In this document: in pieces, positions 33,941-49,286 of the stretch | Numbering within the stretch: position 1 is the stretch's first letter | Layout: each line of letters starts with the position of its first letter | Source of the DNA: Streptomyces asiaticus | GTDB lineage: Bacteria > Actinomycetota > Actinomycetes > Streptomycetales > Streptomycetaceae | Length of the DNA stretch: 64,000 bases | Direction of reading: 5' to 3' | NCBI RefSeq assembly: GCF_018138715.1 | Contig: NZ_JAGSHX010000006.1 | Coordinates: 9,920,001-9,984,000 of the forward strand | Program-made: the position numbers and the translations under genes | The notes under the pieces: generated by a model | The model's input: only the letters and a program-made list of their open reading frames with translations | Told to the model about the DNA's origin: nothing | The model's database searches: none

Positions 33941-35227
33941 TCACAGTTGGGTCGCGGCGGTGACACACAGGCCACCGAGCGCCACGGCCCACACATACGG
34001 AAGCGTCCGCACCATCACCTGTTGCGGTGAGACGCCCGCGTACTGGGCGGCCCACACGGTCTGGGTGCCGGTCGGGTCGGCGACTCCGAAGACCTGGTTG
34101 TACGAGGTGGCCATGCCGAGAACGGCGGCGGCCGGATAGATGCCGATGGCGATGAGGACGCCCGCGATACCGGCGCCGAGGCCGAAGACATTGAGCGGGC
34201 CGCGGTACAGGCACAGCGGCACCAGCAGCGTGAAGACCAGCACGAACAGCACCGCGTTCTGCGGGCTGACCGCCTTGACCAGCGGCTCCAGCGCGTCGAC
34301 GGCACCGGGCAGCTTCACCGCGGCGAGCAGGATGCCGATCGCCACGAACAGCGTGATCGGGGGCGCCGCCACCTCGAAGCCGCCGTACAGGGTGCGCAGC
34401 AGGCGGCGGTTCATCTCGCGCGGCCGTGTCGTCGTCACCAGCGCGTACAGCACGCCCGCCAGCAGCGAGGGAATGATGGCCAGTTCGAAGCCGAGGGCCA
34501 GGACCAGCGGTACCACCGGCGTCAGCAGCGCGTACCACGGGGCGTCGCCGAGCAGCTGCCGTCGGCCGCGTGATGTCGGCCCGCCCTCGAGCGACTTGAG
34601 CGACCAGGTGTGCTCCACACCGCGCCGCCGCGACTCCACCAGGACATACGCGACCGCCGCCACCAGCGCGAACGGGAAGAGCTTCACCATGAAGCCGCGC
34701 ACGATGTCCACCGGCAGTTCCAGCGCCGTGGAGAAGAACTGCCACACCGGGAGCTCGAACGGGACACCCACCGCGATGCCCATGAGGATCGTGCCGGCGG
34801 CCGTCACCTTGGGGATGCCCACCGCGATCATGGCCGGGATCCCGATGAGCCTCGCGAGCATCGCCGCGGGCGCGGACCCCGTGACCGTGCCCACGAGGGC
34901 CGACACCGCGAGGACGCCGAGCGCCACGAACACCGGCCGGTCGCCGCCGAATTCCACGATCTTGCGGACCAGGGTGGCCGCGATGCCGGTCTCCTCCAGG
35001 AGCTTGCCGAGCCACGAACCGAGCAGGATCGCGACCATCGTGGCGGCCAGCGCGGGCGCGCCCTCCTGGAGCACCGTGTCGAGCACGCTGTTCTTTCCGG
35101 TCAGCGGCGCGCCCGCGGCGAACGCGATCGCCACGGCGGGCAGCACCAGCGCGAACGCGGTGGGCAGCCTGCGGGTGAGCATGGCGGCGACGCCCGCCGC
35201 CATGAGGAGCAGAATCACGACACCCAT
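33941..35227 (-). CDS. Ion-transporter-superfamily permease (citrate/gluconate/C4-dicarboxylate type)
   Basis: A 428-residue polytopic protein with about 11-12 spans in two halves. Helix-breaking Gly/Pro motifs occur at GSAPAAMLARLIGIPAMIAVGIPKVTAAG and LYRGPLNVFGLGAGIAGVLIAIG, as in CitM/GntP/DcuC-like carriers. I prefer ATG 35227 (MGVVILLLMAAG) over the longer reading from 35251. It slightly overlaps the HExxH gene upstream. The genes around it (hydantoinase-type, HExxH protein) suggest uptake of an organic acid or amide-type nutrient, but they are broken. Confidence 0.75.
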   Translation of the reverse strand: MGVVILLLMAAGVAAMLTRRLPTAFALVLPAVAIAFAAGAPLTGKNSVLDTVLQEGAPALAATMVAILLGSWLGKLLEETGIAATLVRKIVEFGGDRPVFVALGVLAVSALVGTVTGSAPAAMLARLIGIPAMIAVGIPKVTAAGTILMGIAVGVPFELPVWQFFSTALELPVDIVRGFMVKLFPFALVAAVAYVLVESRRRGVEHTWSLKSLEGGPTSRGRRQLLGDAPWYALLTPVVPLVLALGFELAIIPSLLAGVLYALVTTTRPREMNRRLLRTLYGGFEVAAPPITLFVAIGILLAAVKLPGAVDALEPLVKAVSPQNAVLFVLVFTLLVPLCLYRGPLNVFGLGAGIAGVLIAIGIYPAAAVLGMATSYNQVFGVADPTGTQTVWAAQYAGVSPQQVMVRTLPYVWAVALGGLCVTAATQL

Positions 35228-35840
35228 CGATCCGTCTCGCTTTCGGAACACGCGGTGGCCAGCGCCTCGGTGAGCAGCAGGGGGCTGCGGCCGAGGCCGC
35301 AGGCAGCGCGGGCGTAGGCATGCGCGGCGAGTTCGTCGGCGCCCGCGACATGCGCGTACAGAGGACGCGGCCCGAGCCGCAGCGCGGTGTGGCCGAGCGC
35401 CCGCTTGAACTCGGCCCGGACATGCGTGTGATGGAGCCAGGCATGCGCCCGCTCGTGGGCGAGGGCCGCGGCCAGCACCGACCCCGGGGGAAACCAGTTC
35501 CGCCAGCCGACTCGGTGCCGAGCCGTTCGGCGCGGTCGACCGTGTCGACGTACACCTCGACCACCGGTGGCCGCGACCGGTACCGGGCCAGCAGCCCGGC
35601 GGCGAGCCCGCCGTCCCGCTCGACCACCCGGACCGGCAGCGGACCGGGACTCATGCGGCGTCCGAACTCCTCGGCCGCCTCGGCCCATCGGCGCAGGACC
35701 AGCGGATCGCGACCCTCGTGCGTGGGCGTCCCCGCGAGCAGCCGCACGGCGAGGTCCAGGTCGTGGCCGAGACCGTGGTCGAGACCCGTGGGCGTGGGCG
35801 TGGGCGCGGCCGATGTCGTGGCCGTGGCCGTGGTCGCCAC
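35215..35840 (-). pseudogene. HExxH metalloprotease-like protein with a frameshift
   Basis: Two frames make one protein. From GTG 35840, MATTATATTS leads to the segment DLDLAVRLLAGTPTHEGRDPLVLRRWAEAAEEFGRRM and VVEVYVDTVDRAERLG. Near 35495-35520 the sense moves to the -1 frame, which continues WFPPGSVLAAALAHERAHAWLHHTHVRAEFKRALGHTALRLGPR and on to the stop at 35215. HERAH is a zinc-peptidase motif. The break lies at a T3C5G4 run, so a lost base, a sequencing slip or programmed -1 slippage are all possible. GTG 35840 sits on the TGA of the hydantoinase gene (coupled). Confidence 0.7.
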
Positions 35841-36917
35841 TCATGCGCGGGACTCCACGACCGCGACCATCGGCTCGCCGGCCGCGCGCGTACGCAACTC
35901 GCTGCGGGCCAGCGCCGGCAGCGCCTCGGGTTCGAGCACTCCGGACAGATCCGCGATCCGGCCGCCCACCAGCAGGCGCACCGCGGGCGCCCGCATCCCG
36001 CCGTCGCCGTACGAGGTGGCCTCCCGCACCAGCGAGGCGAGCGCCTCGCCGGCCGCGCCCACGGTCGTCGTCCGCACCCGCGCGTCGGAGACCCCGAGCC
36101 GCACCACCCCGTCCGCGTCCACAACCCGCACCGGCTGCCGCCCCGCGCGCAGCCGGCGCCGCACCTCCGTGCCGTACACCGTGTACGCGTCCGTGCCGGC
36201 CAGGATCCGCACCCGCGCCTCCTGCGCCCTGAGGCTGGCGGCGGCCGCGCGCAGCCGCTCGGCGTCATCGGCCCGGTGCGCCCGGTCCCGCGTGCGCAGT
36301 TCGGTCGCGCCGGTGGCGACGGCCCGTACGGTGCTGGTCTGCGGGTCGACCGTCACCTCGACCTCCACACCGTCGGCCGCGGCACCCTGCGCGACGACCG
36401 CCCGCTCGGCTTCGGCGCGCACGGCGAGGATGTGCTCCTGGGTGGCGCCGGGGATGATCCGCTCGACCTGCTCGCGGACCAGCGCGAGCGCCACCCCGAT
36501 CGGGCTGATGACCTCATGGTGACGGGCGACGCGCCCCTCCAGACCGGCGGCCCGGGCCAGATGCGGGGTCACGGCCGCCGCTCCGCCGCCCCCGCCCACC
36601 AGGACGGCGGTCTCCCGGCCGAACCGGTAGTCGCGGATCATGGTGTCCACGACCGCCCGCACCGACGCGGTCCCCGCGTCCAGCACGGCCCGCGCCGCGC
36701 CCGCCACATCCAGGCCGAGCAGGGCCGCGAGCGGGGCGAGCGCCGCCCGCGCCACCTCCGGGTCGCAGCGCGCGAAGTCGCCCTCGGGGACCCGGACGAG
36801 CGCGTTCGCCGCACACGTCATCGTCACGGCGAACCGGCCGCCCGCCGCGTCCTGAACTCGGGCGTGAGCTTCACCCACCGTCAAGAGCCAGGACGGAACC
36901 ATTCCCACGGAACGCAC
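35841..36917 (-). pseudogene. Hydantoinase/oxoprolinase family protein, C-terminal half only
   Basis: Residues 9-358 match the second half of HyuA-type proteins: TMTCAANALVRVPEGDFARCDPEVARAALAPLAALLGLD, VGGGGGAAAVTPHLARAAGLEG and HHEVISPIGVALALVREQVERIIPG. A full enzyme has about 650-700 residues with an N-terminal ATPase domain, which is missing here. The GTG at 36917 begins just beyond the break, in sequence unlike the family. Downstream it is coupled (ATGA) to the HExxH gene. I infer a 5' deletion that removed the promoter and first half. Confidence 0.7.
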
Positions 36918-37013: not shown

Positions 37014-37028
37014 GTTCACTTCGTGAAC
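37014..37028. promoter_or_regulatory. IclR operator copy 1 (before the iclR gene)
   Basis: GTTCAC-TTC-GTGAAC is a perfect 6+3+6 palindrome located 41 bp before the iclR ATG. The same pattern recurs at 39389 and 39484, which supports autoregulation and a local regulon. Confidence 0.75.
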
Positions 37029-37069: not shown

Positions 37070-37876
37070 ATGAGCAAGTCGACGAGGCCGTCCGATGCCG
37101 CGCGCGCGGACCGGGGCGACCAGGCCGATATCCAGGCGGTGAGCCGGGTCAGCCAGATCCTGTCGCTGTTCGAGCCCGCCACTCCGGAAGTGACCGCCGT
37201 CGAGGTCGCCGAGCGGCTCGGCCTGAACCGCACCACCGCATACCGGTACTGCACGTCCCTGGTCGCGGCGGGGCTGCTCGAGCGCAATGCCGAGGGCAGC
37301 TATGTGCCCGGCGGTCTGCTGCTGCAACTCGGCGCCTTCGCCATCGGCCACCGCAGTGTCATCAATCTCGCCCCGCGCCATATGAGGGCGCTCGCGCGCG
37401 CCACGCAGTCGACCGTGGTGCTCAGCCTCTGGGGCCTCACCGGGCCGGTGGTCTCCCGGGTCGAGGAGAACATCTCCGCCGTGGTCGTGGTGTCCGTGCG
37501 GGTGGGCAGCCATCTGCCGCTGGATTCGGCGCAGAGCAAGGTCTTCCTCGCCTACCACGCCGACCAGTTGTCGATGGAACGGCTGATGGCGAATCTGTCG
37601 GGCCAGGCGCGGGAGGAACTGCGCGCCGACGTCGAGCGGGTTCGCACTGTGGGCCACTGCTCCGCGATGAGCACTCCCGGTGTCGTCGCGGTGGGGGCGC
37701 CCGTGTTCGACGAGGACGGCATCTGTGCCACGATCGCGATCGTCGGCCCGGACAACACCCTGTCGATGTCCGACGACACCCCCGAGCTGAGTGTCGTCGT
37801 CGACACCGCGCGTGCGCTCACCCACGAACTCGGCGGCCACTACCGGCCCGACGACCTCGGCCGGCGGGCGGTGTAG
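37070..37876 (+). CDS. IclR-family transcriptional regulator
   Basis: A 268-residue regulator with an N-terminal winged helix (IQAVSRVSQILSLFEPATPEVTAVEVAERLGLNRTTAYRYCTSLVAAGLL) and the C-terminal IclR effector domain (HMRALARATQSTVVLSLWG, SAQSKVFLAY, VVAVGAPVFDEDG). ATG 37070 lies next to GGAGG. It faces the converging MFS gene. Its own promoter and the shared promoter region of the MFS gene and the six-gene operon all contain the same palindrome, so this protein is the likely local switch. Confidence 0.93.
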   Translation: MSKSTRPSDAARADRGDQADIQAVSRVSQILSLFEPATPEVTAVEVAERLGLNRTTAYRYCTSLVAAGLLERNAEGSYVPGGLLLQLGAFAIGHRSVINLAPRHMRALARATQSTVVLSLWGLTGPVVSRVEENISAVVVVSVRVGSHLPLDSAQSKVFLAYHADQLSMERLMANLSGQAREELRADVERVRTVGHCSAMSTPGVVAVGAPVFDEDGICATIAIVGPDNTLSMSDDTPELSVVVDTARALTHELGGHYRPDDLGRRAV

Positions 37877-37918
37877 GGCCGCGGCGGGGCGCACGGGGCC
37901 GGGCCGGGTGGCGCCGGG

Positions 37919-39316
37919 TCAGGCCAGTTTCGGGATCGTGCTGTCGTCGGCCATGTCGACGTCCCTGGTCTCCGGGCCGAGGAAGCCACCGAACGCGATC
38001 AGTGCGCCGGCGAGCGCGATCAGGACGGCAGGGGCGAGGTGCGAGGGCATGAAGCCGTCGAATTGCCGCAGATAGAACTGGTAGAACGCGGGCGCGATGA
38101 GCGCGAGGCTGTACCCGACGCCATAGCCCGTGGAGCGGATGCTCGTCGGGAACCGCTCGGTCAGATACGCGGCGATCGGGCCGAACGTGCCGACGGTGAA
38201 GACGCCGATCATGACACCCCAGCCGAGGGCGGCCCCCAGGCCACCGTCGGAAACCATGAGCAACGCGTATGAACCGGCGCCGATCACCATGACCGACAGA
38301 CCGTAGCCGATGTAGAACCGCCGCCTCCCGACGCGCTGGGAGAGCAGTCCGAACAGGGGGTAGGACAGCGCGGCGGAGGCGTTGATCACGAGCATGGTCA
38401 GTGTGACCTGCTTGCTCGACAGCAGAAGGTGCTCCTTGAGCTGCCCGGGGGTCACGGCGGCCTCCATATTGGTGGCCAGCCAGGTGCCGGTCATCAGCAC
38501 GAACACCTGGGCCAGCGATTTCGGGTAGCGCACCAGCAGCCGCGCCAACGGCAGTTTGTGCCGCGCCCCGGTGTACTCGGGCGGCGGCTCGTGCACCTGC
38601 GTGAGGTAGTAACGGAACAACAGGGCCGCCAGCAGCGCGCCGGCCACGAAGGGTATCCGCCAGCCCCACTGCACATAAGCGCTGTGCAGTCCGGCGGACG
38701 GCAGCGCTTGCAGCAACAGCAGGGTGAGCGCGGCGATCATCGCGTACGCGGCGGGGGAGGTCGCGGTGATGAGCGAGGCGTTGAGGCCGCGCTTGTGCCG
38801 TGGGCTCCACTCCATCGCCAGGGGCACCGCGGTGGTGTACTCACCGCCGAGGAAGATCCCGTCGATGAATCTCAGCGCGATCAGCAGGCCGACCGACCAT
38901 GTCCCGATCGTCTCGTGGCCCGGCAGACACGCGGTGATCAGCGTGATGATGCCGAAGCCGCCGACCGCGACGAGTGTGGTGCGCTTGCGGCCGACCGTGT
39001 CGGCGAAGTGGCCGAAGATGATCGCGCCGAGCGGACGGCCGATGAGCGTCGAGGCGAACACCAGCGATGCGAGCAGGGCCGTGGTGCTCGCACTCAGATG
39101 CGCCGACTGGAAGTAGTCCGTCGCGGGCGCGAGCACGACGATCGGCAGATAGATGTCGAACTGGTCGACGAAGTAGGCGAACGCCCCGCCACGCACCGCG
39201 GCGCGCGCCTTGGCGGTGTCCGGACCGTGCGGGGTGTTCGGACCGTGCGGGGCGTTCGGGCGAGCGTCGTCGTCCAAGGCCGCCGAATGCTGCTCTGCGG
39301 GGGGCAGTGGGGACAT
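37919..39316 (-). CDS. MFS metabolite:proton symporter
   Basis: A 465-residue carrier with 12 spans and the sugar-porter/MHS-type loop motif FGHFADTVGRKRTTLVAVGG between helices 2 and 3, plus RFIDGIFLGGEYTTAVPLAMEWSPRHKRG after helix 4. I chose ATG 39316 with GGAGG 5 bp upstream; the longer frame from 39394 would include the operator region. It is divergent from the catabolic operon and probably brings in its substrate, likely an organic acid or acidic sugar, judged by family. Confidence 0.9.
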   Translation of the reverse strand: MSPLPPAEQHSAALDDDARPNAPHGPNTPHGPDTAKARAAVRGGAFAYFVDQFDIYLPIVVLAPATDYFQSAHLSASTTALLASLVFASTLIGRPLGAIIFGHFADTVGRKRTTLVAVGGFGIITLITACLPGHETIGTWSVGLLIALRFIDGIFLGGEYTTAVPLAMEWSPRHKRGLNASLITATSPAAYAMIAALTLLLLQALPSAGLHSAYVQWGWRIPFVAGALLAALLFRYYLTQVHEPPPEYTGARHKLPLARLLVRYPKSLAQVFVLMTGTWLATNMEAAVTPGQLKEHLLLSSKQVTLTMLVINASAALSYPLFGLLSQRVGRRRFYIGYGLSVMVIGAGSYALLMVSDGGLGAALGWGVMIGVFTVGTFGPIAAYLTERFPTSIRSTGYGVGYSLALIAPAFYQFYLRQFDGFMPSHLAPAVLIALAGALIAFGGFLGPETRDVDMADDSTIPKLA

Positions 39317-39388
39317 CGCGTCCTCCGGGATCGATTGCTGGCTGCCCGCAGCTCTGAGGTGCCACATGCGGCGCGCTGCGAACTGCGT

Positions 39389-39403
39389 GTTCACGAAGCG
39401 AAC
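39389..39403. promoter_or_regulatory. IclR operator copy 2 (MFS side)
   Basis: GTTCAC-GAA-GCGAAC differs from the perfect copy at 37014 in one half-site base and in the 3-bp spacer. It lies 73 bp upstream of the MFS start codon, in the 196-bp divergent gap shared with the DUF6282 gene. Confidence 0.7.
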
Positions 39404-39483
39404 TGATGGCTACCCTAAAGTTGTGACTTGCGTCGCACAAGACTGCTGCAAGGGGTTGACTCGCGGTCTACAGTGAAACAGGA

Positions 39484-39498
39484 ATTCACAATGCGAAC
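39484..39498. promoter_or_regulatory. IclR operator copy 3 (operon side)
   Basis: ATTCAC-AAT-GCGAAC matches copy 2 in 11 of 12 half-site positions and keeps the 3-bp spacer. It ends 14 bp before the ATG at 39513, downstream of a TTGAC box at 39456, so binding here would block transcription or early elongation of the operon. Confidence 0.65.
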
Positions 39499-39512
39499 CG
39501 AGGTGGTCTCCT

Positions 39513-40403
39513 ATGAGGGAACGTCCTGCCATCGCCGCCGTCCTGGACGGACTGGTCGACATGCATGTCCACTCCGGCCCCAGCCCGTTTCCCCGTCGCT
39601 TCGACCACGTCGAAGCCGCGCAGGACGGTGCCCGGATCGGGATGCGCGCCATGGTCGCCAAGTCCCACCACCACAACACCCAGATGGACATCCTGGCGAT
39701 GAGGGGACGCCTGGACGGAGTCGCCGCGTCCGCCTACGGTGGCATCGCGCTCAACAGCACCGTCGGCGGTCTCAATGTGCACGCGGTGCGCATGTGTCTG
39801 CGCATGGGCGGCAAGGTCGTCTGGTTCCCGACCATCTCCTCGGGCCGGCACATCGACTGCCACCCCGAGGACGGGGCGTTCCCGACCACCACCGTGCCCC
39901 TGACCCTCGAACGCATCGACATCGTCGACGAGAGGGGTGAACTGAAGCCCGAGGCGGCCGAGATACTCGACGAGATCAAGGAGCAGGAAGCCGTCGTCAA
40001 CGGCGGCCATATGTACCCCGAGTACATCCGTACGCTGTTCCGGGCCGCGAAGGACCGCGGCATGACGCGGATGGTCGTCAGCCACCCCGACTATGTGATC
40101 GGCGCCGACCCCGAGCTGTGCCGCGAGCTCATCGCACTCGGCGCGTTCATCGAGCACGAGGTCGGCATGTACGACCCCGAGGGGACGCAGAAGAGGGATC
40201 CGAAGCGGCTGCTGACCTGGATCGAGGCGCTCGGCCCGGAGCACACCGTACTGGCCTCGGACTTCGGGCAGGCGATCAACCCGAAACCGGTGGACGCCTG
40301 GTTGCGGGTCGCCGGGGCGCTGCTCGACCTCGGCCTGCCGGAGAAGGACCTGCGGCGCATGGTCCGCGACAACCCGGCCCATCTGCTCAACCTCGACAGC
40401 TGA
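39513..40403 (+). CDS. DUF6282-type amidohydrolase-like metal hydrolase
   Basis: A 296-residue TIM-barrel metal hydrolase of the DUF6282 type. Metal-binding motifs are LVDMHVHSGPSPFPRRF near residue 16, VAKSHHHNTQMD near 48, GGHMYPEYIRTLF and MVVSHPDYVIGADPELC, and a late Asp in LASDFGQAI. It is the first gene of the six-gene operon and would hydrolyse an amide, lactone or ring in the substrate; the exact bond is not known. A strong ribosome site is not obvious (AGGTGG). Confidence 0.8.
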   Translation: MRERPAIAAVLDGLVDMHVHSGPSPFPRRFDHVEAAQDGARIGMRAMVAKSHHHNTQMDILAMRGRLDGVAASAYGGIALNSTVGGLNVHAVRMCLRMGGKVVWFPTISSGRHIDCHPEDGAFPTTTVPLTLERIDIVDERGELKPEAAEILDEIKEQEAVVNGGHMYPEYIRTLFRAAKDRGMTRMVVSHPDYVIGADPELCRELIALGAFIEHEVGMYDPEGTQKRDPKRLLTWIEALGPEHTVLASDFGQAINPKPVDAWLRVAGALLDLGLPEKDLRRMVRDNPAHLLNLDS

Positions 40404-40430
40404 GTGACAGCCGAGCGAAAGGACACCACG

Positions 40431-41339
40431 GTGTACGAGAAGGACGACCCCCGCTCCTCGCTCGCGACGGCGACCGCGCCACGGCCGGACAGCGGCGCCG
40501 CGATAGCCGCCGCGCAATACTTCGATCTGCACCGCCTCGCCCCGCCCGGCGCCGCGACACCGGACGCCCGTACCGCGGTCGTCCGCGCTCAGAACGTGGT
40601 GCTGGTGCACACCGAGGCGCGGGCCGGAGACGACCTCGACAACGGGACGCTCGACGGTGAGCTCGCCGTGGTGGTCACCGGCGCCTCTCCCGCCTTCACG
40701 GTGGTCACCGGCGGCGGCACCACACGCATCGACGCGCCCGGGCTCGTCGTGGTCCCACCCGGTGGCTCGCGGATCACTGTGCACGGCGACGGCCCGCTGA
40801 TCCGCCTGGTCGAGGCCGGCGAGCCGGCGTGGCGGGACCGGGCCGCCAACGCCGAAGCGTACGCGGAAGACCACCCGCGCGTCGCACCGCTTGAGCGGTG
40901 GCCGGAGCCCGTCGGCGGACCCGCCGTGCGATTTTACCCGCTGGCCGAGGTTCCGGATGACCCGGCACGGTTCGGCCGCATCTTCCGCACCCGGTCGTTC
41001 ATGGTCAACTTCCTGCCCGAACTGGACGGTCCGCGTGACCCGCGCAAGCTCTCACCGCACACCCACGACGACTTCGAGCAGCTGTCGCTGGCCGTACGGG
41101 GCCAATATCTGCACCACATCCGCACCCCCTGGCTGAGCGACAGCTCCCAGTGGCGCGACGACGAGCATGTGCGGCTCGGTAGCCCGTCCCTCGCGATCAT
41201 TCCGCCGCCCACCGTGCACACCTCCGAAGCCGCCGATCCCGATGTGAACCAGCTGATCGACATCTTCAGCCCGCCACGCACCGACTTCTCGGAGAAACCC
41301 GGCTGGGTGCTCAACGCCCACGACTACCCGATGCCATGA
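40431..41339 (+). CDS. Cupin-type protein, probable isomerase or dioxygenase
   Basis: About 302 residues from GTG 40431 (AAAGGA upstream); GTG 40404, abutting the previous stop, is an alternative. A C-terminal cupin motif is clear: SPHTHDDFEQLSLAVRG, with two His and Glu as metal ligands. An N-terminal half with LVVVPPGGSRITVHGDG suggests a second, degenerate cupin fold. I cannot assign the reaction; sugar-acid isomerases and ring-cleaving oxygenases share this shape. It overlaps the aldolase start as ATGA. Confidence 0.7.
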   Translation: MYEKDDPRSSLATATAPRPDSGAAIAAAQYFDLHRLAPPGAATPDARTAVVRAQNVVLVHTEARAGDDLDNGTLDGELAVVVTGASPAFTVVTGGGTTRIDAPGLVVVPPGGSRITVHGDGPLIRLVEAGEPAWRDRAANAEAYAEDHPRVAPLERWPEPVGGPAVRFYPLAEVPDDPARFGRIFRTRSFMVNFLPELDGPRDPRKLSPHTHDDFEQLSLAVRGQYLHHIRTPWLSDSSQWRDDEHVRLGSPSLAIIPPPTVHTSEAADPDVNQLIDIFSPPRTDFSEKPGWVLNAHDYPMP

Positions 41340-42124
41340 GCGCGCCACGACGCACCGGCGCCGGGCTGTTCGCACAGGACCGCGCCACCACCCCGCTCGG
41401 CACCTGGCTGAAGATCGCCTCGGGTGAGCCGGTCGAGATCATGGCGTACGCCGGGTTCGACTTCGTCGTGATCGACCTGGAGCACGCGCCGCTGGACCTC
41501 CAGACCGCGTACCGGCTGATCAACTCGGCCGCCGCGCTGGGCACGGTGCCCCTGGTACGGGTGCCGGACACGACGGCCTCGACGATCCAGAAGATCCTCG
41601 ACGCGGGGGCCATGGGCATCCTCGTACCCCACGTCGACACCGTCGAGGAGGCCGCCGCCGTCGGGCGGGCATGCCGGTTCCCGCCCCACGGTGTGCGCGG
41701 CGCCGGCGCCACCAGCCGTGCCGGAGCGTGGGGGCTCCGCCCCGGCGCCGACTACCTGGCCACCGGCAACGACGACGTGCTGTGCATTCCGCAGCTCGAA
41801 AGCGTCGAGGCCATCAGGGCCGCACCGCGGATCCTGGCTCTCGACTCCGTCGACGCGGTGTTCGTGGGCGCCGCGGACCTTTCGATGTCGATGGGTTCCA
41901 CGCCCGCCTCGCCGGAGGTGCTCGAACTCATCGCCTCCGCGCGGGAAGCCGCGCACACCGCGGGAAAGCCCTGCGGGCTCGCGTTCGGCGGCGCGCCCGA
42001 GCGTGCCGCGCGGGCGGTGCTCGACGGCTGTGACTTCGTCCTGCTCAGCAATGACACATCGATGCTGGCGGAGACCGCGCGCGGGCTGGTCACGGCGTTC
42101 CGGGAAGCGGAGGGTCGCCCATGA
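41336..42124 (+). CDS. HpcH/HpaI-family (class II) aldolase
   Basis: A 262-residue pyruvate-type aldolase. Family signatures include LGTWLKIASGEPVEIMAYAGFDFVVIDLEHAPLDL, LVRVPD, ILDAGAMGILVPHVDTVEEA and the metal-site part CIPQLESVEAI. These enzymes split 4-hydroxy-2-oxo acids to pyruvate (or oxaloacetate type) plus an aldehyde. Start and stop are both coupled: ATGA overlap with the cupin gene, and its TGA overlaps a short leader ORF. It probably performs the central retro-aldol step of the pathway. Confidence 0.88.
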   Translation: MSAPRRTGAGLFAQDRATTPLGTWLKIASGEPVEIMAYAGFDFVVIDLEHAPLDLQTAYRLINSAAALGTVPLVRVPDTTASTIQKILDAGAMGILVPHVDTVEEAAAVGRACRFPPHGVRGAGATSRAGAWGLRPGADYLATGNDDVLCIPQLESVEAIRAAPRILALDSVDAVFVGAADLSMSMGSTPASPEVLELIASAREAAHTAGKPCGLAFGGAPERAARAVLDGCDFVLLSNDTSMLAETARGLVTAFREAEGRP

Positions 42125-42186
42125 CGCTCTCCTTGCCATGCTCGGGTTCGGAGGGTCACCGATGACACTCTCCTTGCCGCGCTCGG
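42108..42186 (+). repeat. Imperfect tandem duplication of a translation start region, with a 14-codon leader ORF
   Basis: The 38-bp segment 42108-42145 recurs at 42149-42186 with 5 mismatches, offset 41 bp. Each copy holds GGAGGGTC, an ATGAC start and CTCTCCTTGCC. The first copy's ATG (42121) overlaps the aldolase stop as ATGA and opens a 14-codon ORF (MTLSLPCSGSEGHR). The ORF ends at 42165, overlapping the second copy's ATG (42162), the start of the oxidoreductase. The duplication thus made a mini-ORF between two coupled genes while keeping stop-start coupling at both ends. Confidence 0.85.
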
Positions 42187-43061
42187 CGCTGTCGATCGCC
42201 GAGCTGGACGACCTCGACCACGGGGGAGCGGTGCGCTTCCTCCGCCTACTGGAGGAGGCCGGCCATCCTATGGTATGGATCCCCGAGGTCGCCGGGCGCG
42301 AAGCGTTCACCACCGCCGCGCTCGCGCTCGGTTCGACACGACGGATGGTCGTGGGCAACGGCGTCGCCCGCGCACTCGAACGCGTGCCGAAGTCCGCGGC
42401 CTCGGCGGCGCGGGACCTCGCTGCCGGCTATCCCGGGCGCTATGTGCTGGGGCTCGGGGTCAGCGGCGCGGTCCGCGAGCGGGGTGTCGGCCCGTTGCCG
42501 TTCCTCCGCCACTACCTTGACGAAGTCGACGCGACCCTCGCCCGCCGCGGCGGCGGGGTGGCGGTGCCGCGGGTGCTCGGCGCGTACTCGCCCCGGATAA
42601 CCCGCCTCGCCTCCGAACGTGCCGACGGCCTCATCACCTTCCTCGTCACACCGGAGCACACCCGCTGGGCGCGCGAGACGATCGGGGACGATCCGTTCCT
42701 GTCGGTCGTCCAGTGGGCGGTGGTGGGCCGCGACCGCGCCGCCGCCCGCGAGGTGGCACGCAGGCGTCTCGCCTACTACCTGACGCTGCCGCACCAGATC
42801 GCGAAGCTGACCCGGCTCGGGTTCACCGAGGCCGACCTCACCCCGCCAGGGTCCGACCGGCTCGTCGACGCCCTCGTCGTCCGCGGCACACCGGAGCAGG
42901 TGCGCCAGGCGGTACGGCGGCAGTACGACGCGGGCGCCACGCAGGTCGCCATCAGCCTGGTCGGAAGGCTGGACGACGCCAAGCTCGACGCCTACCGGGC
43001 GCTCGCCCCCGCACACCATCCGCCCCCGCACACCAACCGAACGACGGGAGAGGACACATGA
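42162..43061 (+). CDS. LLM-class (probably F420-dependent) oxidoreductase
   Basis: A 299-residue luciferase-like monooxygenase-fold protein with the usual flow: FLRLLEEAGHPMVWIPEVAGREAFTTAALAL, LVVGNG-type strand, AGYPGRYVLGLGVSGA, RVLGAYSPRITRLASERADGLITFLVTPEHTRWARE. In actinomycetes such proteins usually use coenzyme F420. I chose ATG 42162, preceded by GGAGG. It would carry out a hydride-transfer redox step on the substrate. The frame upstream of 42162 (from ATG 42138) lies in the duplicated start region. Confidence 0.85.
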   Translation: MTLSLPRSALSIAELDDLDHGGAVRFLRLLEEAGHPMVWIPEVAGREAFTTAALALGSTRRMVVGNGVARALERVPKSAASAARDLAAGYPGRYVLGLGVSGAVRERGVGPLPFLRHYLDEVDATLARRGGGVAVPRVLGAYSPRITRLASERADGLITFLVTPEHTRWARETIGDDPFLSVVQWAVVGRDRAAAREVARRRLAYYLTLPHQIAKLTRLGFTEADLTPPGSDRLVDALVVRGTPEQVRQAVRRQYDAGATQVAISLVGRLDDAKLDAYRALAPAHHPPPHTNRTTGEDT

Positions 43062-43084
43062 CCACCACCGAGGAGAACAACTGA
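43058..43084 (+). CDS. Possible 8-codon coupling ORF
   Basis: ATGACC at 43058 overlaps the oxidoreductase stop (ATGA) and encodes MTTTEENN. Its TGA (43082-43084) overlaps the next ATG (43084). A GAGGAG ribosome site for the next gene lies inside it. It may be no more than a spacer between coupled genes, but the arrangement copies the leader ORF at 42121-42165. Confidence 0.35.
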   Translation: MTTTEENN

Positions 43085-44025
43085 TGCGGGCGGCCGAGAA
43101 GGTCATCATCACCACCGCGGTGACGGGCTCCGTACACGTGCCGTCCCAGAGCCCCTACCTCCCGCTGTCCGCCGAGCAGGTGGCCGAGGCAGCGCTCGAG
43201 GCGGTCGAGGCCGGATCCGCCGTCGTGCATCTGCACGCCCGGCAACCGGACGGGCGGCCCACGTTCGAGCCCGAGGTCTTCGAGCGGATCGTCGGGCGGA
43301 TCACCGCGCGGACCGACGCCGTCATCAACATCACGACCGGTGGTTCGCCGGCGATGACGATGGAGCAACGCCTGGCGGCGGCCGTCCGGCTCCGGCCCGA
43401 GCTCGCGTCGATGAACATGGGCTCGATGAACTTCGTGTACTCGGGGATGGCCGACCGGGTGACCGACTGGAAGCACGACTGGGAGCGGCCCCATGTGCTC
43501 ACGTCCTACTCCCGGCCGTTCATCAACACCTTCGAGACGATCGAACACGCCTTGCGCACGCTCGGCGAGTCCGGCACCCGGTTCGAGTACGAGTGCTACG
43601 ACATCGGACACCTCTACTCGCTCGCCCACTTCGCCGATAGGGGCCTGGCCAAGCCACCCCTGCTGATCCAGGGCGTGTTCGGCGTCCTCGGCGGCATCGG
43701 CGCCGATCACGAGAACCTGGACCACATGGTGCGCGTCGCGGACAAGCTCTTCGGCGACGACTACTCCTTCTCCGCCTTCGCGGCCGGCCGCGACCAGATG
43801 CGGTTCGCCACCCACAGCGCCCTGCTCGGCGGCCATGTGCGCGTGGGGCTCGAGGACAGCCTGTGGATCGGCAAGGGGCGACTCGCGGGGAGCAACGCCC
43901 AGCAGGTCAGGAAGATCCGCTCGCTCGTCGAGGACGCGGACCGACAGATCGCCACACCGGCCGACGCCCGGGCGATGCTCGCGCTGCGCGGCGTCACGGA
44001 CATCGACAGGAGCACGGTCTCATGA
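43084..44025 (+). CDS. Beta-keto acid cleavage enzyme (BKACE, DUF849 family)
   Basis: A 313-residue TIM-barrel enzyme of the Kce/BKACE group. Zinc-ligand and active-site patterns include VVHLHARQPDGRPTFEPEVFERIV and the INITTGGS motif after the fourth strand, then LASMNMGSMNF and FEYECYDIGHLY. Family members use acetyl-CoA to convert a beta-keto acid into acetoacetate and a new acyl-CoA. Its presence implies that the pathway passes through a beta-keto acid, giving CoA-bound products. Start ATG 43084 overlaps a tiny upstream ORF; ATGA overlap with the SDR gene downstream. Confidence 0.9.
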   Translation: MRAAEKVIITTAVTGSVHVPSQSPYLPLSAEQVAEAALEAVEAGSAVVHLHARQPDGRPTFEPEVFERIVGRITARTDAVINITTGGSPAMTMEQRLAAAVRLRPELASMNMGSMNFVYSGMADRVTDWKHDWERPHVLTSYSRPFINTFETIEHALRTLGESGTRFEYECYDIGHLYSLAHFADRGLAKPPLLIQGVFGVLGGIGADHENLDHMVRVADKLFGDDYSFSAFAAGRDQMRFATHSALLGGHVRVGLEDSLWIGKGRLAGSNAQQVRKIRSLVEDADRQIATPADARAMLALRGVTDIDRSTVS

Positions 44026-44780
44026 GCACTCCGCCACTCGCCGGCAAAGTCATCCTCCTCGTCGGGGCGAGCGCGGGAATCGGAGCCGACGCCGCACGCG
44101 TCCTCGCGGAAGACGGCGCCGCGCTCATGCTCGTCGCACGCACCAAGGAACCGCTTGCCGCGCTCACGGAGGAACTCGCCTCCGCCGGACACGACGTGGC
44201 CTTCACGATCGGAGATGTCTCCGACGTGGCGAGCGTGACCCGCTTTGTCGACAACACCGTCGCACGGTTCGGCCGTCTCGACGGGGCGTTCAACAACGCC
44301 GCGATGACCCAGGGCGGGCGCCTCGACGCGGTCCCGGAAGCGGACTTCGACCGGATCATGGCCGTGAACGTGAAGGGCACCTGGCTGTGCGTCCGCGAAG
44401 AGGTGCGCGTCATGGAGCGGCAGGGCTTCGGCTCGATCGTCAACGTGAGCAGCATCGGCGGTCTCCGCGGCAGCTCCGGCATGGGCGCGTACCAGGCCAC
44501 CAAACACGCGGTCATCGGCCTGACCCGCACCGCCGCCCATGACTTCGGACCCCTCGGAATCCGGGTCAACGCGCTGGCCCCCGGCCCGACCGAGACCCCG
44601 ATGCTCGCCGAGACACGGCGTGCGATCCCCGGCGGCGTGGAGGCCCGGATCGCCGCCACTCCCTTGCGCAAGGTCGGCACGGGACGGGAGGTCGGAGCGA
44701 GCGCGGCATTCCTCCTGAGCGACCGCGCCAGCCACATCAGCGGAGCCGTCCTGCCGATCGACGGAGGGCTCTGCGCCTGA
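44022..44780 (+). CDS. Short-chain dehydrogenase/reductase (SDR)
   Basis: A 252-residue classical SDR with the cofactor loop LLVGASAGIGADAARVLAEDGA, the structural NNAAM, the catalytic Ser (VNVSSIGG) and the YQATK active-site pair. The C-terminal ISGAVLPIDGGLCA is typical. It would interconvert a hydroxyl and a keto group, possibly making the beta-keto acid for the neighbouring BKACE. It is the last gene of the operon, coupled by ATGA; a converging pseudogene follows. Confidence 0.95.
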   Translation: MSTPPLAGKVILLVGASAGIGADAARVLAEDGAALMLVARTKEPLAALTEELASAGHDVAFTIGDVSDVASVTRFVDNTVARFGRLDGAFNNAAMTQGGRLDAVPEADFDRIMAVNVKGTWLCVREEVRVMERQGFGSIVNVSSIGGLRGSSGMGAYQATKHAVIGLTRTAAHDFGPLGIRVNALAPGPTETPMLAETRRAIPGGVEARIAATPLRKVGTGREVGASAAFLLSDRASHISGAVLPIDGGLCA

Positions 44781-44861: not shown

Positions 44862-47696
44862 CTAGACCCCTTCCCGGCCGTCCGCCAGTACCACGCAGGC
44901 GCTGAGATGCCAGGTCTCGTCCTCCTTGGAGGACAGCTCCAGGTCCACCTCGCGTCCGGAGGCTCCGCCGTCCAACGGGATCCGGAGCCAGGTGAACTCC
45001 CGGCCGTCGAGCCGCTCGCTCCGGGCCTTCTCGACCCCGTCCACCCGGACGATCAGCGACCTGTTGAAGGTGTTGGGGCCGCCGGTGAGCAGATGCGCGG
45101 TGCAGCGCCCGGCCGGCAGCGTCAACCGCAGTACGGCCGGTGCGCTGTCCCGTACGTAGTCCCGGCGGACCACATCGAACAGTCCGGTGTCCGTGGCGTC
45201 GGGCGCGTTGCCGACCCAGCCGAACCCGGCGCCCTCGTGCCAGCCGGTGGCCGGCGACAGACGGGTGTAGTCCTTCAGCACCGGCGCCGAGGCGGGCCCG
45301 GCGTCCAGCGCGTGGACGCAACGCGCGGCGGGTGGGACGACCACGACCCTGGCCAGGCTGCGCAGCGAGGAGTCCAGCACCGGCACCGCGCCCGACCTCG
45401 GGAGCGCGTGCAGGGTGGCGAGCGCGGGGGCCGGGGGCGGCACCACGGTCATCCTCACCGTCTCGCCCTCTCGCGAGGCCACGTAAGCGGTCGCCTCCTC
45501 GGACCGCCAGCCCTCGGGAACGTCCAGCGTGGTCACCGTGCGCAGCCCGGAGCCCGTCGCGTTGACCACCCGCACCGGAAGCTCGTTGCGCTCCCCGCCC
45601 AGCAGCGCCGTGTCGGCCGGGGCGACGATCGCCTGGAGCCAGCCGCCGCGGTGCTCATCGCGGATCCGGCTCAGCTCGAACCAGTAGGCGGTCAGGGTGT
45701 CCCGCCACTTGGCGGCCTCGGTGAGCTGCTCCCCGAACTGGCGGTGCACCTGGGTGAACCGCCGGTGGTCGACCCGGCGGCGCAGCCCCTCCCAGTCCGT
45801 GCGCATCTCCGCCACCCGCGCCGCGCCGGAGAAGTGCGTGTCGTAGATGTGCTGGATCACGGTTTTGCCGCTGTCCAGCCGGTGGCTGTACGGGACGTGG
45901 TGAAGGAAGAGGAGCAGCTCCTCGGGGCAGTTCGCCAGCGACTCGTAGGCGTCCCGGGTCGCCGGAGCGTACAGCTCGGTGAAACCGTCGCCGGTGGCGG
46001 CGGTGCGGTCGTAGCCGATGCCCTCGCGGTCCGACTTGTGGAACTGGGTGGTCGTCGTCGGGCTGGGGTCGAAGTGCCCGGTCACCGAGCCGTCCGGCGG
46101 ATGGGTGAGATATCCCGTGCCCAGCGGCGAGGTGTAGTCCTCTCGTAGGTGCGCCAGGAGCCCAGCAGCAGGGCGGAGACGGTCTCGACGACGTACGGGT
46201 CGTTGCCGAAGGTCATCCGGGTCCACTCGTCGGCCAGATCCCGCGCGGACAGGTCCGGGTTCCAGGAGAGCCGTCCGTAGCCGTGGGTGTTGGCGGCGGC
46301 CAGGTGTGAGCCGGTCCAGTTCCTGGCATCGCCGAAGTTCATCACACCGGCGAATCCGAAGTGCGCGTTGGAGTGCACCCGGCCGGTCACGACCCGGGCC
46401 ACGGTGCTGCCCTCGCCCGCCTTGAGCGTGTCGAAGTCCAGGACTTCCCGCCACTGCGGGACCAGATAGCACAGATGGGTGGCGTGCCCGGTGTACTCCT
46501 GCGTCACCTGGAGCTCGATCATCGAGTTGGTACGCGGCAGCGAGCCGAAGAGAGGGTGGGCGGGCTCGCGGACCTGGAAGTCGATCGGCCCGTTCTTGAT
46601 CTGGACAATGGTGTTGTCCGCGAACTTCCCGTCCAGCGGTGTGAAGTCGAGGTACGCCTGCCGGTCCCACTTCGCGTCACTGTCGTGTACGAAGGCCCGC
46701 CACATCACGACCCCGCCGTACGGTCTCAGCGCGTCCGCCAGCAGGTTGGCACCGTCGGCGTGGGTGCTCCATAGTCCAACGGCCCGGGGCGGCCCTCGGA
46801 GTTGGCCTTCACCAGGAAGCCGCCGAAGTCCTCGATCCTGCCGTAGATCTCCTCGGCCTTCCTCGTCCACCAGCCGCGCACCCCCGGGTCGAAGGGGTCG
46901 GCGGTGTCCAGCCCGCCCAGGTCGATGGGGGCGGCGAAGTTCGCCGTGACATACAGCGCCACTCCGTAGCGGCGCAGGACACCGGCCAGCGCGGCCAGTT
47001 TGGTCAGGAACGGCTCGGCGAGGTAGTCCGCGGGCGTGTTGACATTGTTGATCACGGCGCCGTTGATGCCGAGCGAGGCCAGGACACGTGCGTAGTCCGT
47101 GTACCGGTCGTCGAGCCGCGGCAGCTCCTCCCAGTCGAAGAAGGACCGGCCCGCATAGCCGCGCTCGATCGAACCGTCGTCGTTGTCCCAGCGGTTGGCC
47201 ATGCGCAGCGGGGCGGCCGGGCGCTCCGTGAGGTCGACACGCTCCAGCGGCCGTCGGGTCTGTACGAGGCGCAGCAGATGGAACGCGCCGTAGAGCACAC
47301 CCCGGTCCGCGTGGGCCGCCACCACGGTGACGTCCGTGCCGCGCCGGGTGACCCGGCGGACGACGTAGCCCTCGTCGCCCAGCTCGGCCAGGTCGGCCGC
47401 GGGGACGAGCTCGCGGATCAGGGCGGAACTCGCCGGGGTGCCCACCACGAGTGCCGCGCGTGCGGGGGCGCTGGTGCGTGGCCTCACCCGGGTGCCGAGC
47501 AGCCCGCTGAGCCCGCGTACCAACTCGTCCACCGCCGACTGCTGTAGTGGACCGCCGCCTCCCTGCCAGACCAGGGTTTCTAACCCGGCCCGGTACCGCT
47601 TGAGTTGAGCGGGATCCGCCACCTGCCGGTACCGAAGCCACAGTTCGTACCCGTCCTCGGCGGGCAGCGCCCCCGCCGGCGCCTCGGTGTTTGGAA
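44862..47696 (-). pseudogene. GH67 alpha-glucuronidase, disrupted
   Basis: Three reading frames join into one glucuronidase. The first (to about 46770) has GYELWLRYRQVADPAQLKRYRAGLETLVW, RMANRWDNDDGSIERGYAG and INGAVINNVNTPADYL. The second (about 46770-46140) has FVHDSDAKWDRQAYLDFTPLDGKFADN, VQIKNGPIDFQVREP and NAHFGFAGVMNFGDARNWTG. The third runs to 44862 with DYTSPLGTGYLTHPP and LLFLHHVPYSHRL. Each join needs one missing base (DYG...STHADGAN near 46770; TYE...DYTSPLG near 46140). The 5' end lacks a start and stops against an IS701-type remnant at 47703. Alpha-glucuronidases remove glucuronic acid from xylan. Confidence 0.85.
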
Positions 47697-48083: not shown

Positions 48084-49286
48084 TTGGATGACATCGACGA
48101 CGTGGGCGTCTTCCTCGGCCTGGACGTCGGCAAGAGCGCCCATCACGGCCACGGCCTCACCCCGGCCGGCAAGAAAGTCTTCGACAAGCAACCGCCCAAC
48201 ACCGAACCGAAGCTGCGGGACGTCTTCGAGAAACTGTAGGCCAAGTTCGGCACCGTCCTGGTGATCGTCGACCAGCCCGCCTCCATCGGCGCCCTCCCGT
48301 TGACGGTCGCGCAGGACACCGGCTGCAAGGTCGCCTACCTGCCCGGACTCTCGATGCGGCGGATCGCCGACCTCTGCCCGGGCGAGGCGAAGACCGACGC
48401 CCGCGACGCGGCCGTGATCGCGGACGCGGCCCGGACCATGCCGCACACCCTGCGCTCGCTGGAACTGACCGACGAGATCACCGCCGCGCTGACCGCACTG
48501 GTGGGCTTCGACCAGGACCTGGCGGCCGAGGCCACCCGCACCTCCAACCGGATCCGCGGCCTGCTCACCCAGTTCCCCCCAGCCCTGAGCGCGTCCTCGG
48601 CCCGCGCCTGGACCACCCGGCCGTGACCTGGCTGCTGGAACGCTACGGATCCCCCTCCGCCCTGCGAAAAGCCGGACGCCGCAGACTGGTCGAGGTGGTG
48701 CGCCCCAAGGCCCCGCGCATGGCACAGCGGCTGATCGACGACGTTTTCGACGCCCTCGGACGAGCAGACCGTCGTGGTCCCGGGAACCGGCGCCCTCGAT
48801 ATCGTGATCCCGTCCCTGGCCCGATCGCCCGGCGCCGTCCACGAACAACGCCGGGCCACAGAAGCCCAGATCAGCGCCCTGCTGGAGGCTCACCCTCTTT
48901 TCAAGGTCCTGACCTCGATGCCGGGGATCGCGGTCAGGACCGCAGCCACCTTGCTGGTCACCGTCGGCGACGGCACCAGCTTCCCCACCGCCGCCCACCT
49001 CGCCTCCTACGCCGGCCTCGCCCCAACCACGAAATCCTCCGGGACCTCGATCCACGGCGAACACGCACCCAGAGGCGGAAACCGGCAACTCAAACGCGCG
49101 ATGTTCCTGTCCGCGTTCGCCGCCCTGCACGATCCCGCCTCCCGCACCTACTACGACCGCTGCCGAGCACACGGCAAGACCCACACACAGGCACTTCTCC
49201 GCCTCGCCCGACAACGGATCAACGTGCTGTTCGCGATGCTCCGCGACGGCACCTTCTACGAACCCCGCACCCCACGCCTCGCTTGA
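48084..49286 (+). pseudogene. IS110-family transposase, disrupted
   Basis: The DEDD-type N-terminus VFLGLDVGKSAHHGHGLTPAG (TTG start 48084, GGAGG upstream) is followed by a TAG at 48237 where homologs have Gln. The text then continues IVDQPASIGALPLTVA, AKTDARDAAVIADAARTMPHTLRSL and LLTQF, changes frame near 48580 into TWLLERYGSPSALRKAGRRRLVE, and again near 48760 (one extra base). The C-terminal Tnp part LTSMPGIAVRTAATLLVTVGDG, YAGLAPTTKSSGTSIHGEHAPRGGNRQLKRAMF is intact to the stop. It cannot move on its own without readthrough. Confidence 0.85.

What the first reader, a model, noticed from the sequence alone, without database searches (positions are those of the whole stretch)
37919..44780. 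Undescribed catabolic pathway: DUF6282 hydrolase, cupin, HpaI aldolase, LLM/F420 oxidoreductase, BKACE, SDR and MFS symporter
Six enzyme genes are translationally coupled and share one regulator. An HpaI-type retro-aldolase plus a beta-keto-acid cleavage enzyme plus an SDR imply a hydroxy/keto acid broken to pyruvate-type and CoA-linked pieces. The DUF6282 hydrolase and F420 enzyme would prepare the substrate. I know of no pathway with this exact set, so it is the strongest novelty candidate in the window.
Basis: inference. Interest (0 to 1): 0.75.

Follow-up and report, generated by a model that had tools for sequence, protein, structure and literature searches.

The report
Conserved acid-degradation operon with DUF6282 hydrolase
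A soil bacterium carries a well conserved set of genes, found again in distant bacteria, that probably opens a small ring-shaped acid, adds water and splits it into pyruvate and a second small keto acid; the chemistry resembles the recently solved breakdown of vitamin B2, but the starting compound is unknown.

Summary
The cluster is real. The enzyme order DUF6282–cupin–HpaI–(LLM)–BKACE–SDR recurs in 29 of 32 close actinobacterial loci, with IclR and a divergent MFS gene in 27. DUF6282, cupin and HpaI recur in 22 of 23 distant loci and on alphaproteobacterial plasmids, one carrying DUF6282, HpaI, cupin, BKACE, SDR and IclR. GTTCACN3GTGAAC occurs 58 times in these 55 loci, always at the cluster's promoters (Markov controls 0, 1, 0); genome-wide, 17 sites, one perfect, upstream of iclR.

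Best reading: hydrolase (DUF6282), hydratase (cupin), retro-aldolase (HpaI), giving pyruvate plus a β-oxo acid used by BKACE+SDR. Relatives carry acetoacetate-CoA ligase or CoA-transferase instead of BKACE; DUF6282 also precedes PIG-L and CHA-aldolase genes elsewhere; LumW–LumY(cupin)–LumX of riboflavin catabolism do this chemistry (PMC12746152).

Against: HpaI is missing in two BKACE loci, LLM in 12 of 30; many DUF6282 loci lack these partners; kinship to LumWYX is untested; substrate unknown. "Undescribed pathway" is partly supported: new variant of a known kind.

The parts
37014..37028 (.). operator-like site 1, perfect GTTCACTTCGTGAAC, upstream of iclR; also about 100 nt upstream of the divergent hydantoinase_A-like ORF
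   Evidence: only perfect copy in the 11.88-Mb genome; a site upstream of iclR in 22 of 32 close loci
37070..37876 (+). IclR-family regulator (268 aa)
   Evidence: PF09339 and PF01614 over cut-off; no NCBIfam cut-off reached
37919..39316 (-). MFS transporter, metabolite:H+ symporter type (465 aa)
   Evidence: PF07690 and PF00083 over cut-off; TIGR00883 200 bits, below its 443 cut-off
39389..39403 (.). operator-like site 2, GTTCACGAAGCGAAC (1 mismatch), in the divergent MFS/DUF6282 gap
   Evidence: a site within 1 mismatch upstream of DUF6282 in 32 of 32 close loci
39469..39498 (.). second conserved element with GTGAA...TTCAC arms and a GAAC half-site upstream of DUF6282
   Evidence: seen by eye in the part of the gap alignment that was printed; not scored statistically
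39513..40403 (+). DUF6282 protein (296 aa), proposed pyrone/lactone hydrolase
   Evidence: PF19799 226.6 bits; invariant H18, H20, H52-54, H166, H191, D250 in 26 aligned sequences; alternating strands and helices as in a beta/alpha barrel, pLDDT 89
40431..41339 (+). double-cupin-like protein (302 aa from GTG 40431; 40404 is an alternative start), proposed dienedioate hydratase
   Evidence: no family hit; predicted structure pLDDT 88; invariant H207, H209, E213, H260, numbered from window 40440
41336..42124 (+). HpaI-type retro-aldolase (262 aa)
   Evidence: PF03328 117.8 bits; D-x-E-H, R, E and D aligned with 4b5s (residue roles recalled)
42121..42165 (+). short imperfect tandem duplication at the HpaI/LLM junction
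   Evidence: sequence; 13 of 18 LLM-bearing close loci have a 4-nt overlap here
42162..43061 (+). LLM-class flavin/F420 oxidoreductase (299 aa), accessory
   Evidence: PF00296; TIGR03620 216.2 bits, just under its 219.8 cut-off
43084..44025 (+). [quoted passage not shown]
   Evidence: PF05853 336 bits; NF053538 495 bits, cut-off 430; 358-378 bits to 3e02, 3e49, 8rio
44022..44780 (+). SDR oxidoreductase (252 aa)
   Evidence: PF13561 208 bits; no NCBIfam cut-off reached among the 25 models shown of 230

Best explanation
This is a one-regulator operon for an imported carboxylic acid. DUF6282 opens a 2-pyrone-type or related lactone carboxylate by hydrolysis; the double cupin adds water to the resulting 2-hydroxy/2-oxo-dienedioate; the HpaI aldolase splits the 4-hydroxy-2-oxo-dioic acid into pyruvate and a beta-oxo acid R-CO-CH2-COOH. 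In this lineage BKACE, with the SDR, disposes of that beta-oxo acid through acetyl-CoA, giving an acyl-CoA and acetoacetate; relatives use acetoacetate-CoA ligase or CoA-transferase with or without thiolase instead. IclR binds GTTCACN3GTGAAC upstream of its own gene and in the divergent MFS/DUF6282 gap. Shown here: gene set, order, conservation, the palindrome and its places, alternative downstream modules. Inferred: every enzymatic step, the order of steps, that IclR binds the palindrome and represses. Unknown: the substrate and R. R is probably not methyl, since BKACE acting on acetoacetate would give no net reaction.
For: (1) Enzyme order conserved in 29 of 32 close loci; cupin and HpaI both present in 22 of 23 distant ones, with IclR in 23 of 23. 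(2) Across phyla: DUF6282, IclR, HpaI, cupin, TRAP transporter, BKACE and SDR together on a Pseudosulfitobacter plasmid; other plasmid loci. (3) BKACE, CoA-transferase or acetoacetate-CoA ligase in 31 of 32 close, 7 of 23 distant and 7 of 25 plasmid loci, against 0 of 20 evenly spaced 20-kb stretches of the own genome; three of those 14 non-close hits are BKACEs of only 31-35% identity. (4) One R. opacus open frame of 923 aa joins an HpaI domain (51% identical to the window's) to an acetoacetate-CoA ligase (TIGR01217 813 bits, cut-off 521), right behind a cupin 50% identical to the window's. (5) DUF6282 lies directly before a PIG-L protein and a CHA aldolase in Thermus and in 2 of 17 stretches from the family of L052, and before a PIG-L protein in Alicyclobacillus: constant hydrolase, exchanged partners. 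(6) LumW, LumY (a cupin) and LumX do hydrolysis, hydration and retro-aldol cleavage to pyruvate + acetoacetate (PMC12746152). (7) Small cupins in two DUF6282-HpaI loci match the C-terminal half of the window's cupin (8.5e-6 and 6.8e-5, but for a two-sequence comparison only). (8) Palindrome.
Against: HpaI is missing in L026 and in the BKACE-bearing L122; cupin and HpaI are missing in L043. 16 of 23 distant and 18 of 25 plasmid loci show no beta-oxo-acid gene by the probes used. 7 of 17 stretches from the family of L052 show none of the expected partners, and in Novosphingobium, Rhodococcus WAY2 and haloarchaea DUF6282 has other neighbours, so its role may vary. The fusion is in a single unannotated record. 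No sequence of LumW, LumX or LumY was available, so likeness to them is by reaction only; LumW is 40 kDa and LumY 16 kDa on gels, against about 32 and 33 kDa here. 15 of the 17 genome-wide near-matches to the palindrome lie outside the cluster and were not examined. The need for the SDR and LLM is not explained.
Confidence: 0.58

Rival explanations
1. Protocatechuate-type: the substrate is 2-pyrone-4,6-dicarboxylate or a close analogue; HpaI gives pyruvate + oxaloacetate, and BKACE+SDR serve a side product.
For: DUF6282 beside catechol 2,3-dioxygenase, a PIG-L protein and a CHA aldolase (NF006731 193.9 bits, cut-off 179; but TIGR02798 only 180 of 304.5) in Thermus, and beside PIG-L and CHA-aldolase relatives in 2 of 17 stretches from the family of L052.
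Against: BKACE and acetoacetate-CoA ligase partners fit neutral beta-oxo acids better than oxaloacetate; no ring-cleavage gene among the eight genes of the window cluster.
Confidence: 0.12
2. 4-Hydroxy-2-pyrone or cyclic 1,3-diketone route: hydrolysis gives a 3,5-dioxo acid such as 3,5-dioxohexanoate, which BKACE cleaves; HpaI acts on another branch.
For: BKACE passes the model named 3,5-dioxohexanoate:acetyl-CoA acetone transferase; a cyclase-family gene (PF04199 tested for L122) lies in some variants, the family name given for the phloroglucinol ring-opening enzyme (PMC10470551); cupin IfcD acts on a 2-hydroxy-4-pyranone (PMC11069340).
Against: BKACE15 of the same group takes several substrates in vitro (PMC11961710), so the model name is not a physiological assignment; the HpaI is unexplained; homology to IfcD was not testable.
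Confidence: 0.13
3. Sugar-acid route: lactonase, cupin isomerase, 2-keto-3-deoxy acid aldolase (HpaI), SDR and BKACE as in deoxyribonate degradation.
For: SDR+BKACE+lactonase+MFS is the Pseudomonas simiae deoxyribonate set (PMC6365646, passages); HpaI also scores well with the GarL and 2-keto-3-deoxy-L-rhamnonate aldolase models, though below their cut-offs; two plasmid loci, Roseomonas and Agrobacterium tumefaciens, have enolase-superfamily genes, a superfamily that includes sugar-acid dehydratases (recalled), near HpaI or the cupin.
Against: Other relatives keep company with ring-cleavage-type dioxygenases, monooxygenases and acetoacetate-CoA ligase; the two enolase-superfamily cases are 2 of 25 plasmid loci, one of them without DUF6282 or HpaI by the probes.
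Confidence: 0.12
4. Loose assembly: the genes serve separate routes and only share a promoter.
For: LLM, HpaI and the DHOD-like gene come and go.
Against: Order and strand conserved over genera; cross-phylum recurrence of the set; shared palindrome.
Confidence: 0.05

Closest known systems
Lower lumichrome (riboflavin) pathway LumW-LumY-LumX, Nocardioides simplex (PMC12746152)
   Same: hydrolase, cupin and aldolase as successive steps; products pyruvate and a beta-keto acid (as proposed here)
   Different: the upstream lumichrome enzymes are not among the window cluster's eight genes; cupin about 33 kDa against 16 kDa; BKACE+SDR added; homology of the three enzymes not tested (no sequences)
Protocatechuate 4,5-cleavage lower pathway (PDC lactonase, OMA hydratase, CHA aldolase; details recalled)
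   Same: hydrolase-hydratase-aldolase order; DUF6282 sits beside a PIG-L/CHA-aldolase pair in Thermus and in two stretches from the family of L052
   Different: other protein families for the proposed hydratase and aldolase; no ring-cleavage enzyme in the window cluster
Oxidative deoxyribonate pathway (SDR, BKACE, lactonase, MFS; PMC6365646)
   Same: SDR and BKACE as an acetoacetate-forming module, with MFS transporters
   Different: DUF6282, cupin and HpaI are not mentioned in the passages seen (they were not search terms)
Anaerobic phloroglucinol pathway of Clostridium scatologenes (PMC10470551)
   Same: a BKACE-family enzyme cleaving a beta-keto acid, and an SDR
   Different: aldolase not mentioned in its text (0 hits); its cyclase-family ring-opening enzyme is not in the window cluster, only in distant variants
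Isoflavone ifc cluster of Variovorax (PMC11069340)
   Same: flavin monooxygenase, glyoxalase-type dioxygenase, hydrolase and cupin, as in locus L063 and, with another monooxygenase type, L071
   Different: aldolase not mentioned in the text (0 hits); sequence relation of its cupins to this one not tested

Membership tests
DUF6282 (PF19799) | profile match over gathering score | tested here: met
   226.6 bits against 26.8
BKACE (PF05853) / NF053538 | curated cut-offs and Zn-site motif HLHAR with R-x3-E-D | tested here: met
   336 and 495 bits; motifs aligned to 3e02, 3e49 and 8rio; residue roles recalled
BKACE: physiological 3,5-dioxohexanoate enzyme | substrate preference | not testable with these tools
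   several in vitro substrates reported for BKACE15 (PMC11961710, passages)
HpcH/HpaI aldolase (PF03328) | profile match and catalytic D-x-E-H, R, E, D | tested here: met
   residue roles recalled
HpaI equivalog TIGR02311 (4-hydroxy-2-oxoheptanedioate aldolase) | score over equivalog cut-off | tested here: not met
   173.8 against 368.8 bits
TIGR03620 F420-dependent LLM | score over subfamily cut-off | tested here: not met
   216.2 against 219.8 bits, a near miss
Cupin superfamily | sequence profile match | tested here: not met
   no Pfam or NCBIfam hit at E<=0.001
Cupin superfamily | double beta-barrel fold and HxHxxxE...H metal set | tested here: inconclusive
   strand-rich model pLDDT 88 and invariant residues; weak profile match to a PDB cupin, E 0.044; fold search switched off
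Lumichrome pathway | homology to LumW, LumY, LumX | not testable with these tools
   their sequences were not at hand
Lumichrome pathway | upstream P450, Rieske, xanthine-oxidase-like and extradiol enzymes in the cluster | tested here: not met
   none among the eight genes of 37070-44780; the rest of the genome was not searched for them
Deoxyribonate pathway | SDR+BKACE+lactonase+MFS | tested here: inconclusive
   SDR, BKACE and MFS present; whether DUF6282 is a lactonase is unknown; extra HpaI and cupin
Protocatechuate 4,5-cleavage | ring-cleavage dioxygenase, OMA hydratase, CHA aldolase | tested here: not met
   not among the cluster's eight genes; the rest of the genome was not searched for them

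The most novel reading that the evidence does not exclude
DUF6282 is a broad new family of pyrone/lactone hydrolases and this double cupin a new class of dienedioate hydratase. Together they form a portable hydrolase-hydratase-aldolase unit whose hydratase and aldolase are exchanged for unrelated enzymes between lineages, as is the module behind them. In this window R is hydrogen, the aldolase yields malonate semialdehyde, and BKACE splits it to formyl-CoA and acetoacetate, which would give a natural role to the reaction engineered in the CORE cycle (PMC11961710).
Probability: 0.15. Interest if true: 0.75.

Novelty: new variant of a known kind. Interest (0 to 1): 0.52.

Why it matters
It gives a testable function to DUF6282 (949 relatives at E<=0.001 in one search; no paper naming it found) and to an unnamed cupin family (890 and 2608 relatives in two searches that may overlap). 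It suggests that the final chemistry worked out for vitamin B2 breakdown may be a general module that bacteria attach to different ring-opening routes. It also offers one predicted regulator with a clear candidate operator, so that inducer screening could reveal the substrate directly.

Tried and rejected
Phloroglucinol degradation as such: the BKACE model name suggested it, but its cyclase-family ring-opening enzyme is not in the window cluster and BKACE15 of the same group takes several substrates; the SDR could in principle be a reductase of that kind, so it is kept inside a rival. RutA-like pyrimidine oxidation (LLM, flavin reductase, NMT1-type transporter in some variants): an idea from gene types, not tested, left out. 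Hydantoin: the hydantoinase_A-like ORF lies just upstream of iclR on the other strand, and operator-like site 1 is about 100 nt in front of it, so control by IclR is possible here; but of L003-L034 only L003 has a match to it, about 3 kb from iclR, so it is not counted as part of the unit. F420 enzyme as an essential step: rejected, absent in 12 of 30 loci with BKACE. DHOD-like gene: 11 of 18 LLM-bearing close loci have it, 0 of 12 LLM-less ones do (in L008, one of the 18, the upstream side is not held); relatedness of strains confounds this. A sigma-70 promoter at the conserved TTGAC upstream of DUF6282: spacing does not fit; not claimed. Homology to LumWYX or IfcD: no sequences; the third protein search showed no Variovorax name in the 120 rows listed of 2608. 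A phylum sample of 296 genomes found the cupin only in the window's own genome, and BKACE of this clade (E<=1e-60) is in 3 of 199 genomes of the genus, own included, so the cluster is rare. A second operator pattern (GTGAAN6TTCAC) gave 7 scattered hits, none in the MFS/DUF6282 gap.

Papers seen: PMC12746152 (abstract, sections 8 and 15, passages), PMC11069340 (sections 15-17, passages), PMC6365646, PMC11961710, PMC8552027 and PMC6449761 (passages), PMC10470551 (outline with abstract, passages); others only as search listings.


Full report
What is there. The window carries eight genes: iclR (37070-37876, +), an MFS transporter (37919-39316, -), and on the + strand DUF6282, cupin, HpaI aldolase, LLM oxidoreductase, BKACE and SDR (39513-44780). 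Two of the five enzyme junctions overlap by 4 nt; the others leave 27, 37 and 22 nt. The 37-nt HpaI/LLM gap comes with a short tandem duplication; 13 of 18 LLM-bearing close loci have a 4-nt overlap there. Named close relatives of the DUF6282 protein are in Streptomyces iranensis and S. rapamycinicus (97%); the genome has 11.88 Mb.

Conservation. A genome scan with DUF6282 gave 55 loci. Of the 32 closest (L003-L034), 30 have BKACE; L028 has a CoA-transferase instead, and L030 is a contig ending after DUF6282. All 30 have SDR and cupin, 29 have HpaI (missing in L026), 18 have the LLM (truncated in L034). IclR and the divergent MFS gene stand in front of the full enzyme order in 27; in L008 the contig begins at DUF6282, and in L015 the iclR match is 8 kb off. 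In the 23 distant loci iclR is found in all, cupin and HpaI both in 22 (neither in L043); a BKACE is found in one (31% identical), CoA-transferase in 5, acetoacetate-CoA ligase in 1, thiolase in 7. By the same probes BKACE, CoA-transferase or acetoacetate-CoA ligase occur in 31 of 32 close, 7 of 23 distant and 7 of 25 plasmid loci, and in 0 of 20 evenly spaced 20-kb stretches of the own genome. The controls come from one genome and do not share the relatedness of the loci; the probes were made from members of these very loci; 8 of the 25 plasmid loci have no DUF6282 match over the threshold.

Other lineages. tblastn on plasmids found DUF6282 in 46 records and the cupin in 27; 25 stretches were fetched, three of them without annotation. 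Pseudosulfitobacter pSMR1-3 has DUF6282, IclR, HpaI, cupin, three TRAP genes, BKACE, an NAD(P)H oxidoreductase and an SDR. Paracoccus, Gemmobacter and Agrobacterium leguminum have TRAP, DHOD-like, DUF6282, HpaI and cupin genes, the last two with a small cupin and a semialdehyde dehydrogenase (the Agrobacterium DHOD-like gene is annotated only as hypothetical). Microvirga has HpaI, cupin, DUF6282 and CoA-transferase. In five loci without a DUF6282 match (R. opacus L063 and L068, Pseudosulfitobacter L071, Streptomyces L157 and L158) cupin and HpaI relatives sit with a glyoxalase- or extradiol-type dioxygenase and a hydrolase; four of the five also have a monooxygenase-type gene (none seen in L068), and four have BKACE or acetoacetate-CoA ligase (not L063). 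L157 and L158 are nearly identical to each other. The dioxygenases of L068 and L071 score below the catechol 2,3-dioxygenase cut-off. In haloarchaea, Novosphingobium and Rhodococcus WAY2 DUF6282 has other neighbours. Roseomonas and A. tumefaciens loci have enolase-superfamily genes nearby.

Second look. In a sample of 391 genomes of the order, 14 strong cupin places were found in addition to 13 weak ones (E 4e-5 to 8e-4), which were left aside. Twelve of the 14 were fetched; the others are the window itself and L122, fetched before. At least three of the twelve are genomes (equal contig lengths), so they are not all new. Five have the close type of enzyme order without the LLM; one has DUF6282, cupin, HpaI, CoA-transferase and thiolase; six have cupin+HpaI, two of these with acetoacetate-CoA ligase. 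In the family of L052 (a Marmoricola MAG; Nocardioidaceae by recall), 17 of 294 genomes had DUF6282 at E<=1e-15. Of 17 stretches read, 7 to 20 kb long, 3 have cupin, HpaI, iclR, CoA-transferase and thiolase; 2 have DUF6282, PIG-L and CHA aldolase in a row; 2 have catechol 2,3-dioxygenase and CHA aldolase in the stretch; 1 has CHA aldolase and cyclase; 2 have HpaI and an iron ADH; 7 have none of these.

Regulation. GTTCACN3GTGAAC with at most one mismatch occurs 58 times in the 1.06 Mb of the 55 loci, against 0, 1 and 0 in three first-order Markov controls. In the 32 close loci it lies upstream of DUF6282, in the MFS gap where that gene is held, in all 32, and upstream of iclR in 22. The three hits in distant loci fall between iclR and the divergent cupin gene by comparison with the gene maps; the other 20 distant loci have none. 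Neither test corrects for common descent. In the own genome there are 17 sites within one mismatch, one of them perfect (reversed-pattern control 2); two are in this cluster, the perfect one upstream of iclR; the 15 others were not examined, so a wider regulon is not excluded. Site 1 also lies in front of the divergent hydantoinase_A-like ORF of the window.

Function. DUF6282 is predicted to be a beta/alpha barrel with conserved metal-type residues. In Thermus it stands behind a catechol 2,3-dioxygenase and a GntR gene and in front of a PIG-L/CHA-aldolase pair; that this is the place of a PDC lactonase rests on recalled knowledge of that pathway. The shared logic, hydrolase then hydratase then aldolase with partners exchanged, suggested that HpaI releases a beta-oxo acid. 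A natural HpaI/acetoacetate-CoA-ligase fusion behind a cupin relative agrees with it, but it is one record. The published lumichrome pathway gave the closest chemical match: 4-methyl-6-carboxypyrone is hydrolysed by LumW, hydrated by the cupin LumY and split by LumX into pyruvate and acetoacetate. The terms beta-keto and thiolase do not occur in that paper's main text. BKACE acting on acetoacetate would be a null reaction, so this window's pathway probably makes a different beta-oxo acid; which one is open. The SDR may reduce or form the BKACE substrate.

Verdict. A real, conserved catabolic operon of unknown substrate, probably under one regulator; its likely core chemistry has one in-vitro precedent, its enzyme set and downstream module are a new variant.

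Noticed in passing
44862-47641 (-): A large gene that resembles an alpha-glucuronidase (recalled resemblance, no family search) is spread over several frames in the window, while a relative has one long ORF there (L004 15288, 942 aa).
   Followed up: partly
35215-36917 (-): A hydantoinase_A-like gene (PF01968) appears split into two frames here; one relative has a single 713-aa ORF (L003 2298). Operator-like site 1 (37014) lies about 100 nt in front of it.
   Followed up: partly
42121-42165: Short imperfect tandem duplication at the HpaI/LLM junction; most close relatives have a 4-nt overlap instead. Could be real or an assembly error.
   Followed up: partly
L068 12885-15656: Single 923-aa open frame joining an HpaI aldolase domain to a nearly full-length acetoacetate-CoA ligase; the only plasmid record covering 80% or more of it.
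   Followed up: yes
L122 (G326:C135): Streptomyces variant with DUF6282, BKACE (72-73%), cupin, ABC transporter, IclR, cyclase and iron ADH but no HpaI match in the 18 kb read.
   Followed up: partly
G000:C6:5448484-5449344: A second BKACE in the genome, 31% identical; no other cluster gene matched in the short locus held around it.
   Followed up: no
48261-49286 (+): ORFs that look like a broken IS110-type transposase (recalled resemblance) beyond the glucuronidase-like gene.
   Followed up: no
L159-L162, L069, L070: Cupin+HpaI pairs with SnoaL-like proteins and, where tested or annotated (L160, L070), DUF3500, a two-component-type flavin enzyme or a Rieske protein: perhaps another branch of the same chemistry.
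   Followed up: no
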